NCBI GenBank assembly: GCA_944326175.1
Contig: CALVCY010000150.1
Span: forward strand, 1-26,747
Length of the DNA stretch: 26,747 bases
From: an uncultured Erysipelotrichaceae bacterium
GTDB taxonomy: Bacteria; Bacillota_I; Bacilli_A; Erysipelotrichales; Erysipelotrichaceae
Direction: 5' to 3'
The position numbers were made by a program, and so were the translations under genes. Each line of letters opens with the position of its first letter. The first letter of the stretch is position 1. Shown in pieces: positions 1,379 through 26,453 of the stretch. Under the pieces are notes generated by a model. That model worked only from the letters and a program-made list of their open reading frames with translations. It searched no databases and was not told where the DNA came from.

Positions 1379-2167
1379 ATGAAAATTCTGTTTCTAGCAG
1401 ATGTAGTCGGAAAGAGCGGCAGAGCCGCTCTTTCAAAGCATCTGCCCCTGCTTAAGCAGGAATATGATATTGATTTTACCATTGTCAATGGTGAAAACAG
1501 TGCGCATGGAAAAGGCATTACCATGCGTATATATAATGCCTTTAAAAGTTATGGTGTGGACTGTATCACATTAGGTAATCATGCATTCAGTAAGCGCGAG
1601 ATCCTGGATCATCTAGATCAATGTCAGGATCTGGCTTATCCCAATAATCATCCACTATCCAAAGTGCAGCAAGGTGTACGAAGCTATGTCCTTGGCGGAG
1701 TAAGAATGCATGTGGTCAATCTATTGGGGAAGTCGTTTATGTCACCGGAACCGACGGTTTCACCATTTGAAATGATGGATCAGTTCCTCAAATCGATTGA
1801 TCCAGAAGATATGGTTTTCGTGGATTTCCATGGTGAAACCACCGCAGAAAAACGTGCTTTTTTTGAATGTTATAAACAACGCTGCATTGCGGTCGTGGGA
1901 ACCCATACCCATGTGCAGACTGCGGATGAAATGGTTGACGAGGGTTGTGCCTTCATCAGCGATGCTGGGATGGTTGGTCCATATCATTCCGTATTGGGAC
2001 GAGAAATCCAACAATGTATCATCATGATGAAAGAAGGGATCAATCTGCGTTATCGAGTTTCGGAAGAGGAAGCAATCGTCTGTGGCGTGGTCATTACCAT
2101 TGATGATACCACGCACCGTAGCAGTGCCATCCAACGCATTCAAATTCGACCGGGAGAGTCACTATGA
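1379..2167 (+). CDS. ymdB: YmdB-type metallophosphoesterase (2',3'-cNMP phosphodiesterase)
   Basis: This 262-residue calcineurin-like phosphoesterase is of the YmdB/TIGR00282 family, whose Bacillus member hydrolyses 2',3'-cyclic nucleotides and affects biofilm and RNA turnover. Di-metal ligands fall at the expected places: D8 in LFLAD, E39-N40 in NGENSAHGKG, N67-H68 in LGNHAF, a histidine in DFHGETTAEK near residue 150, and GTHTHVQTADE near 175. Length matches the family. The ATG lies 3 bases after the rny stop, and no strong Shine-Dalgarno is visible, so translation may be coupled to rny. Its stop overlaps the next start by 4 bases (ATGA). Synteny with rny supports a shared role in RNA metabolism. 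Confidence 0.95.
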   Translation: MKILFLADVVGKSGRAALSKHLPLLKQEYDIDFTIVNGENSAHGKGITMRIYNAFKSYGVDCITLGNHAFSKREILDHLDQCQDLAYPNNHPLSKVQQGVRSYVLGGVRMHVVNLLGKSFMSPEPTVSPFEMMDQFLKSIDPEDMVFVDFHGETTAEKRAFFECYKQRCIAVVGTHTHVQTADEMVDEGCAFISDAGMVGPYHSVLGREIQQCIIMMKEGINLRYRVSEEEAIVCGVVITIDDTTHRSSAIQRIQIRPGESL

Positions 2168-2550
2168 AAAAAGTCATCACCTATGGAACCTATGATTTGC
2201 TCCACCTTGGTCATATTCGACTTTTGAAACGTGCAAAAGCATTGGGTGATTATCTTGTTGTGGCGATCAGCACTGATGAATTCAACGCCATTAAAGGTAA
2301 ACAGGCATTTTATCCATATAGTGTGCGTAAGGAAATGGTGGAAGCCATCCGCTACGTGGATGAAGTCATCCCTGAAAATGATTGGAATCAAAAGCAACAC
2401 GACATTGATGCCCATGATATTGATATATTCGTGATGGGCGATGATTGGAAAGGCAAATTCGACGATTTAAAGAATGTGGAGATTGTCTATTTACCCCGAA
2501 CGGAAAATATTTCCACAACTCAGATCAAACACGATCTTCATGAGCAATAA
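2164..2550 (+). CDS. tagD: Glycerol-3-phosphate cytidylyltransferase-like protein
   Basis: A 128-residue single-domain cytidylyltransferase. It shows the nucleotidyltransferase HxGH signature in LLHLGHIRLL near the N-terminus and the RTENISTTQIK signature near the C-terminus; both match TagD (129 residues in Bacillus), which makes CDP-glycerol for teichoic acid synthesis. The sequence MGDDWKGKFDDL is also TagD-like. It overlaps the ymdB stop by 4 bases and is the last gene before a strong terminator. The substrate is inferred from family resemblance; no other teichoic acid gene lies in the window, so a related CDP-alcohol role is possible. Confidence 0.88.
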   Translation: MKKVITYGTYDLLHLGHIRLLKRAKALGDYLVVAISTDEFNAIKGKQAFYPYSVRKEMVEAIRYVDEVIPENDWNQKQHDIDAHDIDIFVMGDDWKGKFDDLKNVEIVYLPRTENISTTQIKHDLHEQ

Positions 2551-2559
2551 GACAAATAG

Positions 2560-23692: not shown

Positions 23693-23726
23693 ATATCAAT
23701 CAACATCGAAGGTAAAGGAAGAACTT

Positions 23727-26453
23727 ATGGAAGGAAAGAATTACAAAGAAACACTCAACATGCCTCGCACGGATTTTGAAATGCGTGGCAATCTACCTAA
23801 AAAAGAACCACAAATGGCGCAACAATGGGAAAAAGAGGATCAATATCATCAAGTCATTTCCCGCCACAAAGGTCAAAAAGCTTTTGTATTGCATGATGGA
23901 CCACCCTACGCCAATGGTAATCTGCACGCTGGTACGGCCATGAACCGGGTCATCAAGGATTTCATCAACCGCTCCCATGCCATGAATGGATATTACACAC
24001 CGTTTTTCCCAGGATGGGATACTCATGGTCTGCCCATTGAAAATGCCGTTCAAAAACTCGGTGTCGATCGTAAGTCCATGCCCAAAGACGCATTCCGTGC
24101 CAAGTGTGAAGAATATGCCAAAGGGCAGGTCGAAACTCAGATGGCAACCATGAAGCGATTGGGTACTATGGCAGATTTTGATCATCCCTACATCACCTTG
24201 CAGAAAGGCTTTGAAGCCCGTCAGATCCGTACATTTGGCAAAATGGCCACCCAAGGATTGATTTTTCAAGGATACAAGCCGATCTATTGGTCACCCTACA
24301 ATGAAACGGCCATTGCCGATAGCGAGATCGTTTACTTTGACCGCAAAGACACATCCATCTTTGTAGCATTTAAAGTAGCGGATACCAAAGGCGTGCTGGA
24401 TGGCGATGAATCTTTTGTGATCTGGACCACCACTCCATGGACGATCCCAGCCAATCTAGCGATCTGTTTGAATGAACGCTTTATCTATGCGGTGGTTGAA
24501 ACCAGTAAAGGCAAATTGATCGTTTTGGATAGCAAGGTGGATCAGCTGATGGCTCAATTTGGTATCGACCAGTATAAAGTGGTTCGAACCATCCCTGGTA
24601 AAGATCTGGAGTATGTGACAGCACATCATCCGTTATATCCCGATCGTACATCCTTGGTCATCTTAGGGGACCATGTCACGGATGAAGATGGTACTGGTTG
24701 TGTCCACACTGCACCAGGTCATGGTGCAGAAGACTTTACCGTCTGCCAAAAATACAAGATCCCCACATTCTGTCCAGTCGATGCCAAAGGCTGTTTGACG
24801 GACGAAGCTGGCGTAGCATTATCGGGCATGTTTGTCTTTGATGCCAATTCAAAAGTCATTGAAATGTTGGATGAATGTGGAGCATTGATGGCAACTGAAA
24901 CCATCACGCACTCCTATCCTCATGATGATCGACTCAAAAAACCCGTTATTTTTCGTGCGACCAAACAATGGTTCTGTTCCATTGACAAGATCCGTGATCA
25001 ATTGCTCGATCAGATCGACCACCATGTCACTTGGCACAACCAATGGGGACAGATCCGCATCCATAACATGATCGCTTCCCGTGGTGACTGGTGCATTTCC
25101 AGACAACGTTTATGGGGCGTTCCCATTCCAATCATTTATAACGAAGACGGGTCCCCCATCATGGAAGAGGCAGTATTTGACCATATCGCGGATCTTTTTG
25201 AACAATTTGGTTCCAATGTTTGGTTCCAAAAAGAGGCCAAAGATCTATTGCCGGATGGTTATACCAATCCTGCATCCCCCAATGGACAATACACCAAGGA
25301 AAATGACATCATGGATGTCTGGTTCGACTCCGGTTCATCGTTCAATGAGTTGCAAGCCAGAGGGTATGATTTCCCAGCTGATCTGTATTTTGAAGGCAGT
25401 GATCAATACCGCGGCTGGTTCAATTCCAGTTTGATCGTTTCCACTGCATCCAAAGGTTGTGCTCCATACAAAGCCGTATTGAGCCATGGCTATGTTTGTG
25501 ATTCCAAAGGGGAAAAGATGAGCAAATCCGTGGGTAATGTCGTCAATCCCATGGATGTCATCGATCAATATGGTGCCGATATTTTCCGTTTGTGGGCCAT
25601 GACCAGTGACTACACTGAAGATATGCGCATCGGTGCCGAAAACCTCAAACAAGTGGCTGAACAATACCGTAAAGTGCGCAACACCTTCAAATTCATGTTA
25701 GGCAATGTCAATGCGGATGATTTTGATCCAACGCGCGATATCGTGGCATACGACGATATGTCCGCTTTAAATCGTTACATGTTGTTGCGCTTAAAGGCGG
25801 TCAATGACGCTGTGATCGAAGATTACATGCATTACAACTTTGTCGCCGCCAGTGTAAAACTGACCAATTTCATGGTCAACGAACTATCTGCCTACTATTT
25901 ATCCTACACCAAGGATATCCTGTATATCGAAGCCAAGGATGATCCCAAGCGTCGTGCGGTGCAAAGTGTGATCTGGCAGTTGACGGATACCTTATGCAAA
26001 CTGTGGGCCCCGGTATTGGTCTTTACCATGGATGAAGTTTGGCATCACTTCACAGACAAGTGTGAATCCAGTGTCCATTACACACAATTCAATACATTGG
26101 ATGAAATCAAAGATGATCCTGAGTTGATGGATGCCATGGATCTTGCCATGAGTGTGCGCTCGGATGCACTCAAAGCATTGGAACAAGCCCGAAACGAAGG
26201 CAAAATCAAGGATAATCAGCAGGCGGCATTATCCATGGTCTTACCACAGGAAAAAGTGGAATCGTTGAAAGCGGTGATCGATAATATCGCTCAATGGTTG
26301 ATCGTATCCAAGGTGACTATCCAAAGCGGAACATCACAGATCAACGTCTATAAAGCCGATGGTCATGTTTGTCCACGTTGTTGGAATGTCGTGGATGAAG
26401 TCGACCATGACGGATTATGTCCACGTTGTCACGGTATACTCCATCACGATTAA
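23727..26453 (+). CDS. ileS: Isoleucyl-tRNA synthetase, zinc-binding bacterial type
   Basis: IleRS charges tRNA-Ile and edits valine. The 908-residue class Ia enzyme starts MEGKNYKETLNMPRTDFEMR. The usual HIGH signature reads HAGT (67-70) in PPYANGNLHAGTAMNRV, so the final histidine is replaced by threonine. The KMSKS loop is intact (597-601). The editing domain has FVIWTTTPWTIPANLAI and DEDGTGCVHTAPGHGAEDF. Near the C-terminus two CPRC motifs (HVCPRCWNVV and GLCPRCHGIL) form a zinc site, which marks the bacterial type 1 enzyme. The ATG is preceded by AAGGAAGAA. The upstream T-box gives regulation by uncharged tRNA-Ile. Confidence 0.97.
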   Translation: MEGKNYKETLNMPRTDFEMRGNLPKKEPQMAQQWEKEDQYHQVISRHKGQKAFVLHDGPPYANGNLHAGTAMNRVIKDFINRSHAMNGYYTPFFPGWDTHGLPIENAVQKLGVDRKSMPKDAFRAKCEEYAKGQVETQMATMKRLGTMADFDHPYITLQKGFEARQIRTFGKMATQGLIFQGYKPIYWSPYNETAIADSEIVYFDRKDTSIFVAFKVADTKGVLDGDESFVIWTTTPWTIPANLAICLNERFIYAVVETSKGKLIVLDSKVDQLMAQFGIDQYKVVRTIPGKDLEYVTAHHPLYPDRTSLVILGDHVTDEDGTGCVHTAPGHGAEDFTVCQKYKIPTFCPVDAKGCLTDEAGVALSGMFVFDANSKVIEMLDECGALMATETITHSYPHDDRLKKPVIFRATKQWFCSIDKIRDQLLDQIDHHVTWHNQWGQIRIHNMIASRGDWCISRQRLWGVPIPIIYNEDGSPIMEEAVFDHIADLFEQFGSNVWFQKEAKDLLPDGYTNPASPNGQYTKENDIMDVWFDSGSSFNELQARGYDFPADLYFEGSDQYRGWFNSSLIVSTASKGCAPYKAVLSHGYVCDSKGEKMSKSVGNVVNPMDVIDQYGADIFRLWAMTSDYTEDMRIGAENLKQVAEQYRKVRNTFKFMLGNVNADDFDPTRDIVAYDDMSALNRYMLLRLKAVNDAVIEDYMHYNFVAASVKLTNFMVNELSAYYLSYTKDILYIEAKDDPKRRAVQSVIWQLTDTLCKLWAPVLVFTMDEVWHHFTDKCESSVHYTQFNTLDEIKDDPELMDAMDLAMSVRSDALKALEQARNEGKIKDNQQAALSMVLPQEKVESLKAVIDNIAQWLIVSKVTIQSGTSQINVYKADGHVCPRCWNVVDEVDHDGLCPRCHGILHHD

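What the first reader, a model, noticed from the sequence alone, without database searches (positions are those of the whole stretch)
1831..26246. Highly iterated interrupted palindrome TGGTNNNACCA across the whole window
About 30 exact copies of TGGT-N3-ACCA, plus about 9 with a 4-base centre, are seen in 26.7 kb. With equal base frequencies, less than one copy of each would be expected. TGGT and ACCA are each common here, so the proper null is higher, but I judge it still far below 30. Codon habit (Gly-x-Thr as GGT-NNN-ACC) explains only some copies: others are read in a different frame (VKP, VGP, MVRP), on the opposite strand (in tmcAL), or lie outside genes. The non-coding copies (4457, 15187, 16214, 17076, 17132, 23473, 23649 and the 12-base form at 23612) are dense given how little intergenic DNA exists. 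It behaves like the cyanobacterial HIP1 palindromes or a genome-wide binding or modification site.
Basis: seen in the sequence. Interest (0 to 1): 0.8.

Follow-up and report, generated by a model that had tools for sequence, protein, structure and literature searches.

The report
Genome-wide palindrome TGGT-N3/4-ACCA
An unnamed bacterium and one sequenced relative carry a short mirror-image DNA word about every 500 bases, kept by evolution even where it seems to change proteins, most likely as the landing site of a DNA-binding protein that coats or organises the chromosome.

Summary
The window holds 34 TGGT-N3-ACCA and 15 TGGT-N4-ACCA; spacers 0-2 and 5-9 give 0-3 each. Synonymous-codon shuffles give 3.6 of each in coding DNA against 25 and 14. 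One of 315 held genomes of the relatives' order, G142, shares the trait: 2182 N3 and 968 N4 copies in 1.6 Mb; no other does in a 392-genome phylum sample. Between window and G142, 20 of 28 gap-free N3 cores are kept, 6.5 expected. Copies pair at 20-22.5 bp, two helical turns (33, null 7.8). Gly-x-Thr is in excess in G142 proteins. Both spacers are those of GntR-family operators. Best explanation: a maintained genome-wide site for a dimeric GntR-type protein acting on the chromosome rather than on single promoters. A FadR-like protein of G142 is the leading candidate; its binding, and its presence in the window's organism, are not shown. HIP1-like methylation remains a rival; uptake, hairpin and codon-habit readings are disfavoured.

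The parts
1831..1841 (.). k=3 copy in ymdB
   Evidence: kept in G142
2088..2099 (.). k=4 copy in ymdB
   Evidence: kept
2723..2733 (.). k=3 copy in tmcAL
   Evidence: kept
3049..3060 (.). k=4 copy in tmcAL
   Evidence: kept
3109..3119 (.). k=3 copy in tmcAL
   Evidence: kept
3470..3481 (.). k=4 copy in tmcAL
   Evidence: kept
3596..3606 (.). k=3 copy in tmcAL
   Evidence: kept
4457..4467 (.). k=3 copy, intergenic, upstream of mraZ
   Evidence: kept
5312..5322 (.). k=3 copy in rsmH
   Evidence: lost in G142 (one core mismatch)
5713..5723 (.). k=3 copy in rsmH
   Evidence: kept
7004..7014 (.). k=3 copy in penicillin-binding protein gene
   Evidence: kept
7304..7314 (.). k=3 copy in penicillin-binding protein gene
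   Evidence: lost
8192..8202 (.). k=3 copy in penicillin-binding protein gene
   Evidence: lost
8411..8421 (.). k=3 copy in penicillin-binding protein gene
   Evidence: kept
9383..9394 (.). k=4 copy in mraY
   Evidence: kept
9759..9769 (.). k=3 copy in PF09997 membrane-protein gene
   Evidence: kept
10284..10295 (.). k=4 copy in PF09997 gene
   Evidence: kept
10399..10409 (.). k=3 copy in PF09997 gene
   Evidence: lost in G142, but a k=4 copy lies at the position equivalent to 10384
10717..10727 (.). k=3 copy in unnamed gene 10490-11473
   Evidence: lost
10969..10979 (.). k=3 copy in gene 10490-11473
   Evidence: lost in G142, but a k=3 copy lies at the position equivalent to 10981
11136..11147 (.). 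k=4 copy, pair partner of 11158 (21.5 bp)
   Evidence: k=3 in G142 at the same place
11158..11168 (.). k=3 copy, pair partner of 11136
   Evidence: lost
11474..11484 (.). k=3 copy at start of cmk
   Evidence: kept
12065..12076 (.). k=4 copy in cmk
   Evidence: lost
13463..13474 (.). k=4 copy at start of gpsA
   Evidence: kept
13856..13866 (.). k=3 copy in gpsA
   Evidence: kept
14769..14779 (.). k=3 copy in minus-strand ORF 14732-15154 (below-cut-off C-GCAxxG-C-C match)
   Evidence: kept
15187..15197 (.). k=3 copy, intergenic upstream of murQ
   Evidence: kept
15855..15865 (.). k=3 copy in murQ
   Evidence: lost
16214..16224 (.). k=3 copy, intergenic, just behind murQ stop
   Evidence: kept
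16338..16349 (.). k=4 copy in minus-strand ORF 16289-17020
   Evidence: lost
17076..17086 (.). k=3 copy, intergenic
   Evidence: kept
17132..17142 (.). k=3 copy, intergenic upstream of miaB (if miaB starts at 17155)
   Evidence: kept
17925..17935 (.). k=3 copy in miaB, read as Gly-Gln-Thr
   Evidence: kept; residues differ in relatives
19080..19091 (.). k=4 copy in RNase J gene
   Evidence: kept
20247..20257 (.). k=3 copy in RNase J gene
   Evidence: kept
20327..20337 (.). k=3 copy in ftsK
   Evidence: kept
21206..21216 (.). k=3 copy in ftsK
   Evidence: lost
21502..21512 (.). k=3 copy in ftsK
   Evidence: kept
23160..23170 (.). k=3 copy in sepF
   Evidence: outside the aligned part
23473..23483 (.). 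k=3 copy inside the T-box leader before ileS
   Evidence: not aligned
23612..23623 (.). k=4 copy inside the T-box leader, arms extended to 8 bp each
   Evidence: not aligned
23649..23659 (.). k=3 copy inside the T-box leader
   Evidence: not aligned
24493..24504 (.). k=4 copy in ileS
   Evidence: not aligned
24560..24571 (.). k=4 copy in ileS, pair partner of 24580 (20 bp)
   Evidence: not aligned
24580..24591 (.). k=4 copy in ileS, pair partner of 24560
   Evidence: not aligned
25256..25266 (.). k=3 copy in ileS
   Evidence: not aligned
26017..26028 (.). k=4 copy in ileS
   Evidence: not aligned
26236..26246 (.). k=3 copy in ileS
   Evidence: not aligned

Best explanation
The palindrome is a genome-wide, selectively maintained double-stranded DNA binding site (symmetrised consensus aTGGT-y-n-r-ACCAt, spacer 3 preferred, 4 accepted) for an abundant dimeric protein of the GntR winged-helix type. 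Each monomer reads TGG(T) in one half-site, and dimers sit side by side two helical turns apart where copies are paired. With about 3150 copies in 1.6 Mb of G142, in genes and in all kinds of intergenic gaps, the protein most likely organises or marks the chromosome, like a sequence-specific nucleoid protein, rather than regulating single promoters. The leading candidate is a FadR-subfamily (GntR-FCD) protein of G142, encoded right behind genes that read as nusA-infB-rbfA, with six close metagenomic versions that I presume to come from the same clade. Shown: excess, spacing rule, restriction to one lineage among the genomes counted, conservation, helical pairing, Gly-x-Thr excess. Inferred: GntR identity, dimer geometry, chromosome role. 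Not shown: any binding, and the candidate's presence in the window's own organism.
For: TGGT/ACCA at k=3 and k=4 are the two top dyads of the window, and in the window plus 310 kb of G142 k=3 ranks first, the other leading entries being mostly shifted readings of the same motif. Same density in G142, one of 315 genomes, k=4 too. At k=3 copies of the window the core is 96% identical in G142, flanks 80%, spacer 78%; from G142 to window 92, about 81 and 71%. 20 of 28 k=3 and 7 of 9 k=4 cores are kept, 6.5 and 2.7 expected from phase-matched shifts; positions sharing one half keep all eight bases in 86 of 269 (k=3) and 130 of 306 (k=4). Five of five aligned intergenic k=3 copies kept. Pairs at 20-22.5 bp: 33 against 7.8 (maximum 20 in 1000 runs), none at 15-19.5 bp (null 12.9); one-mismatch sites around 605 perfect ones give 27 at 20-21 bp; k=3 and k=4 copies pair with each other. 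Present in convergent gaps and flat along genes. FadR and NagR read two adjacent guanines with two arginines, half-sites 5 and 6 nt apart (PMC4333415, passages), which I translate to k=3 and k=4. PdhR box and LldR consensus hold TGGTNNNACCA (PMC7660256, PMC9600882, passages). Candidate: 17 homologues found among 5.8 billion proteins by a word-based search, six at 49-88%; FadR-type fold (1e2x TM 0.72/0.80; first by E-value is VanR 6z74).
Against: No binding data. At k=4 the conservation contrast is weaker: from G142 to window the spacer (92%) is as conserved as the core (93%). Copies are clumped, not even (variance 28 against mean 8.9 per 5 kb). Relatives of the candidate at E below 1e-80 lie in 15 other genomes of the order, which have 8-47 copies each: the family alone does not bring the motif. 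The candidate has Lys and His where canonical GntR proteins have two Arg (canonical pattern and FadR numbering recalled). G142 has four other GntR proteins; the clade distribution of one (L119) was checked, of the other three not. Other DNA-binding families were not surveyed. One paper search for a GntR protein with thousands of sites showed none in its listing.
Confidence: 0.5

Rival explanations
1. A HIP1-like element tied to DNA methylation: an orphan methylase modifies (part of) the palindrome, and methyl-directed repair or another methylation function creates and maintains copies.
For: Copy density equals that of cyanobacterial HIPs. In that study every genome with HIP sequences has one or more methylases predicted to recognise part of them (PMC4390886, abstract and part 1 of 3 of the discussion). 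Conservation and spread into genes fit equally.
Against: In G142, PF01555 and PF00145 hits lie only in a motif-poor island on C25 (2 copies in 20 kb). PF02384 hits C3:3269-4207, where the first 5 kb hold no copy, and C48 (25.2 bits, cut-off 20.4), not read. Other methylase families were not searched. Eight specified bases with two spacers are unusual for a methylase (recalled). Two-turn pairing is not explained.
Confidence: 0.15
2. Classical but very large regulon: a GntR repressor with many promoter sites, the rest being decoys.
For: Operator grammar; k=3 density is 3.12 per kb in divergent and 2.31 in tandem gaps against 1.16 in genes.
Against: Density is flat along genes, and convergent gaps also exceed genes (1.86 per kb; mechanical ORF calls). 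Copies inside genes are conserved (15 of 23 genic k=3), and Gly-x-Thr is raised, which decoys would not need.
Confidence: 0.1
3. A DNA-uptake sequence accumulated by biased transformation.
For: About one copy per 500-750 bases; conserved; spread into genes.
Against: ComEC (PF03772) found in 0 of 3 genomes (G142, G001, G143), while it rings in 10 of 14 controls; G142 is in many contigs and may be incomplete. Known uptake sequences are not palindromic (recalled). Helical pairing unexplained.
Confidence: 0.05
4. A hairpin element in RNA or single-stranded DNA (4-bp stem, 3- or 4-base loop).
For: Spacers 3 and 4 suit hairpin loops; three copies lie in the T-box leader.
Against: In the top 25 no other stem at loops 3-4 has more than 4 copies in the window. 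The consensus extends with y..r inside the loop. Pairs follow two turns of duplex DNA. Of 11 copies lost in G142, 9 differ by one core base and none by a compensated pair.
Confidence: 0.04
5. Codon or amino-acid habit (GGT-NNN-ACC).
For: The commonest frame of k=3 copies reads Gly-x-Thr.
Against: Codon-preserving shuffles give 3.6 against 25 and 14; intergenic copies far exceed a Markov model; other frames and the minus strand occur.
Confidence: 0.01

Closest known systems
HIP1 and alternate HIPs of cyanobacteria (GCGATCGC and others)
   Same: Palindrome at about 1000-2000 copies per Mb, limited to a lineage (PMC4390886).
   Different: Interrupted palindrome with two spacers, 4 of 8 specified bases G or C, in a relative of Erysipelotrichales, no matching orphan methylase found in three families searched, pairing at two helical turns.
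Operators of GntR-family regulators: FadR, PdhR, LldR (spacer 3) and NagR dre sites (spacer 4)
   Same: Same half-sites and the same two spacers (PMC7660256, PMC9600882, PMC4333415; passages).
   Different: Those are operators of regulators, for example 35 PdhR targets in one screen; here thousands, also in genes and convergent gaps.
DNA uptake sequences of Neisseria and Pasteurellaceae (recalled)
   Same: Density and spread into genes.
   Different: Palindromic here; ComEC not found.
Sequence-specific chromosome organisers (MatP, SlmA, Noc; recalled)
   Same: Palindromic site, dimeric protein, sites across the chromosome and inside genes.
   Different: Tens of sites there, about 3150 here; the protein is not identified.

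Membership tests
HIP (highly iterated palindrome) | Palindromic oligomer strongly above chance genome-wide | tested here: met
   2182 against 93 for the reversed control in G142; window nulls
HIP (highly iterated palindrome) | 1000-2000 copies per Mb | tested here: met
   2182 and 968 in about 1.6 Mb
HIP (highly iterated palindrome) | GC-rich, at least 75% GC in the forms that replace HIP1 (one 50% form supplements it) | tested here: not met
   4 of 8 specified bases are G or C
HIP (highly iterated palindrome) | A methylase predicted to recognise part of the sequence is present | tested here: inconclusive
   Hits of three families lie in motif-poor stretches or are low-scoring; specificity not predictable here; not all methylase families searched
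GntR-family operator | TGGT half-sites with spacer 3 (FadR type) or 4 (NagR type) | tested here: met
   for the sites; for the published sites
GntR-family operator | Bound by a GntR protein of the same organism | not testable with these tools
   G142 encodes five GntR proteins; no binding assay
GntR-family operator | Located mainly at promoters | tested here: not met
   Flat along genes and present in convergent gaps, though intergenic density is higher
FadR subfamily of GntR (candidate protein) | GntR wHTH plus FCD domain and FadR-type fold | tested here: met
   Pfam GntR 46.1 bits, FCD 26.8 bits, cut-offs 27 and 24.3; FadR and VanR structures match
FadR subfamily of GntR (candidate protein) | Two arginines that read adjacent guanines | tested here: inconclusive
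   In the alignment the first Arg is kept and the second is a Lys, invariant in 16 rows; equating them with FadR Arg35 and Arg45 rests on recalled numbering
DNA uptake sequence | Competence channel ComEC in the host | tested here: not met
   PF03772 in 0 of 3 genomes, 10 of 14 controls ring; draft genomes
Restriction site | Site avoided in the host genome | tested here: not met
   Site is in large excess

The most novel reading that the evidence does not exclude
One bacterial lineage has turned a FadR-type metabolic regulator into a sequence-specific chromosome-coating protein with about 3000 sites, some helically phased, and selection for those sites has rewritten its protein-coding genes down to the amino-acid level (surplus Gly-x-Thr).
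Probability: 0.3. Interest if true: 0.9.

Novelty: new variant of a known kind. Interest (0 to 1): 0.77.

Why it matters
Highly iterated palindromes are an old riddle known mainly from cyanobacteria, where the favoured link is methylation. This is an independent case in another phylum with a different kind of motif, whose spacing rule names a protein family and whose two-turn pairing points to protein on duplex DNA. It makes the question of what maintains thousands of palindromes testable with a few purified proteins, and it suggests a DNA-level demand visible in the proteome. Anyone predicting protein motifs in this clade should allow for Gly-x-Thr and Val-x-Thr that serve the DNA.

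Tried and rejected
Relatives in 80 MiaB loci: no excess (22 copies at k=3 and 17 at k=4 in total, 5 to 33 at other spacers). Repeat family or transposon: flanks share nothing beyond the short consensus and close pairs lie in unrelated sequence. Phages carrying the motif: 117 viral stretches with a 20-22 bp pair; of the 25 densest printed, no stretch over 3 kb exceeds 9.4 copies per 10 kb (G142 mean about 18). 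Periodicity beyond the first pair: among nine periods tried the Fourier sum was largest at 11 bp, not 10.5, and was not tested for significance. Other pair distances, observed against null: 3 against 6.9 at 23-25 bp, 8 against 6.7 at 25.5-27.5, 5 against 13.9 at 28-33, 16 against 9.2 at 34-37.5, 19 against 12.6 at 50-54. One-mismatch sites also peak at 123 bp (14), unexplained. Methylases. The UTRA-type GntR of G142 (L119): four homologues, one at 97%, the rest 47-48%, so apparently not shared by the clade. Paper listings for a GntR nucleoid protein and for iterated palindromes showed nothing on this motif as a genome-wide element (open-access library only). A first look at motif-coded Gly-x-Thr gave a large effect per aligned cell (Gly kept in 83 of 244 against 288 of 343); per site it is weaker (0.40 over 32 against 0.65 over 54, p = 0.04), and window and G142 versions of one site count twice there; use the latter. 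The gene content of the densest contig (C2) was not identified (one search failed and was not repeated).

Full report
What was claimed and what is there. The window (26,747 bases, 45% GC) holds 34 copies of TGGT-N3-ACCA and 15 of TGGT-N4-ACCA; spacers 0, 1, 2, 5, 6, 7, 8 and 9 give 0, 2, 0, 0, 3, 0, 1 and 2. From the frequencies of the halves 1.5 copies per spacer are expected, and among all four-base dyads at spacers 0-11 these two rank first and second by ratio. Synonymous-codon shuffles inside genes give 3.57 copies (max 10 of 300 runs) at k=3 against 25, and 3.57 (max 8) at k=4 against 14; a second-order Markov model of intergenic DNA gives 0.10 against 8. One of those eight, 14769, lies in a minus-strand ORF with a below-cut-off C-GCAxxG-C-C match; counting it as a gene leaves seven k=3 copies in 1758 intergenic bases. 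Gene names in the window are my reading of the ORFs; only murQ, gpsA, the glycerol-3-phosphate cytidylyltransferase gene, the PF09997 gene, the T-box and the tRNA come from a search.

Whose genome. No genome is held for the window. Its MiaB matches records titled Erysipelotrichales or Erysipelotrichaceae best, at 64% identity. The 80 loci of relatives show no excess. In the 315 held genomes of the order of G001 (the genome of locus L001) the motif was counted: G142 has 2182 copies against 93 for the reversed control; the next highest count is 115, in 4.3 Mb. G142 has 968 N4 copies against 117. In 392 genomes drawn over the phylum, some of them the same, only G142 stands out (next: 148, control 106). 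G142's MiaB is 90% identical to the window's, and window 1-22993 aligns with contig C40 at 84% nucleotide identity. The trait is seen in two different assemblies and in no other lineage counted.

Anatomy. I read 37 stretches of G142, 581,806 bases, with 739 k=3 and 334 k=4 copies. The symmetrised consensus is aTGGT-y-n-r-ACCAt. Copies with one G to A change in a half are also in excess at k=3 (102 and 98). By mechanical ORF calls, k=3 density is 3.12 per kb in divergent, 2.31 in tandem and 1.86 in convergent gaps and 1.16 in genes, and flat along genes. Copies are clumped (variance 28 against mean 8.9 per 5 kb). The first 20 kb of C25, with DISARM genes and a type III restriction gene, hold 2 copies where about 37 are expected from the mean; recently acquired DNA may lack them.

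Selection. At k=3 copies of the window the core bases are 96% identical in G142, the spacer 78%, the flanks 80%; in the other direction 92, 71 and about 81%. At k=4 the contrast is weaker (97, 87 and about 86%; other direction 93, 92 and 86%). Whole cores are kept at 20 of 28 gap-free k=3 copies (6.5 expected from phase-matched shifts) and 7 of 9 k=4 copies (2.7 expected, p = 0.004). Positions that share only one half-motif keep all eight bases in 86 of 269 (k=3) and 130 of 306 (k=4) cases. The five aligned intergenic k=3 copies are all kept (null 0.40 each, p = 0.01). Of 39 aligned copies 27 are the same, one changed spacer, 11 are lost; two lost copies have a new one 12 and 15 bp away in G142, too few for a claim of turnover.

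Effect on proteins. In 417 G142 proteins Gly-x-Thr occurs 1010 times against 607 expected, the highest z-score (16.3) of residue pairs at that distance; the ratio is 1.66 against 1.11 in 258 proteins from 21 loci of the closest relatives and 1.30 in 465 from Bacillaceae loci. 563 of the 1010 are GGT-NNN-ACC against 209 expected. Val-x-Thr, a k=4 reading, is 1.22 against 0.89 in the relatives. In the 20 window proteins alone nothing can be said: Gly-x-Thr and its reversed control Thr-x-Gly both count 41 against 29. At motif-coded Gly-x-Thr, relatives keep the Gly at a mean of 0.40 over 32 sites, against 0.65 over 54 sites without the motif (p = 0.04). MiaB and YmdB are examples of change; at one site (L089, residue 71) the Gly is kept in 40 of 40. 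The motif thus seems to have altered residues, on modest evidence per site.

Helical pairing. Over G142 and the window (1123 copies) 33 pairs lie 20-22.5 bp apart, centre to centre, against 7.8 when copies are jittered by whole codons (maximum 20 in 1000 runs). None lies at 15-19.5 bp (12.9 expected). One-mismatch sites around 605 perfect ones give 27 at 20-21 bp, against about 3 to 4 per bp elsewhere. Pairs mix k=3 and k=4. Two turns of duplex DNA plus an empty zone is what side-by-side dimers would give; a hairpin or a mutational process would not.

What reads it. The half-site and both spacers are those of GntR-family operators. In the NagR paper (PMC4333415, passages) FadR and NagR use two arginines on two adjacent guanines, with half-sites five and six nucleotides apart, which I translate to k=3 and k=4. 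The PdhR box and the LldR consensus contain TGGTNNNACCA (PMC7660256 and PMC9600882, passages). G142 has five GntR proteins. One, at C27:11405-12154, has an FCD domain and a FadR-type fold (pLDDT 85.7). It sits on the same strand behind genes that read as rimP, nusA, infB and rbfA (not from a family search). A word-based search found 17 homologues; six, 49-88% identical, resemble in spread the close versions of the window's PF09997 protein, so I presume the same clade; their DNA was not seen. Its recognition helix has Lys and His in all 16 aligned proteins where GntR proteins usually have Arg. Fifteen other genomes of the order have relatives of it at E below 1e-80 but only 8-47 motif copies; in the six such loci looked at the gene stands beside an oxidoreductase-like gene. 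So this protein is a candidate, not a demonstrated binder.

Rivals. Methylation: PF01555 and PF00145 hit only C25, PF02384 a motif-poor part of C3 and a low-scoring place on C48. Uptake: no ComEC in 3 genomes searched, 10 of 14 controls positive. Restriction: sites would be avoided. Hairpin: see rivals. Codon habit: refuted. Phages with the motif: none found.

Verdict. A real, strong, lineage-specific highly iterated palindrome outside cyanobacteria, under selection, most likely a genome-wide protein-binding site with GntR-type grammar. The protein, and the function on the chromosome, remain to be shown.

Noticed in passing
L104 (G142:C25:1-20000): DISARM genes (DrmA, DrmB, DrmC, DrmD, DrmMII) with a type III restriction gene and two abutting methylase frames; almost free of the palindrome.
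   Followed up: partly
window 23446-23672: T-box leader before ileS holding three copies of the palindrome, one of them (23612) with 8-bp perfect arms.
   Followed up: no
G095, G124, G077, G069: These genomes have far fewer TGGTNNNACCA than the reversed control (7 against 43, 12 against 69, 7 against 40, 5 against 32): possible avoidance or composition effect.
   Followed up: no
G184 and G187: Zero motif and zero control matches in 2.3 Mb each; perhaps extreme composition or withheld sequence.
   Followed up: no
L140, L142-L145, L147: Relatives of the candidate GntR protein stand next to a conserved oxidoreductase-like gene on the other strand.
   Followed up: no
L218 and L255 (viral contigs): 10 and 9 k=3, and 8 and 8 k=6 copies of the dyad in 13.6 and 11.7 kb; looks like another repeat pattern.
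   Followed up: no
window 14732-15154, minus strand: ORF with a below-cut-off match to the C-GCAxxG-C-C family.
   Followed up: partly
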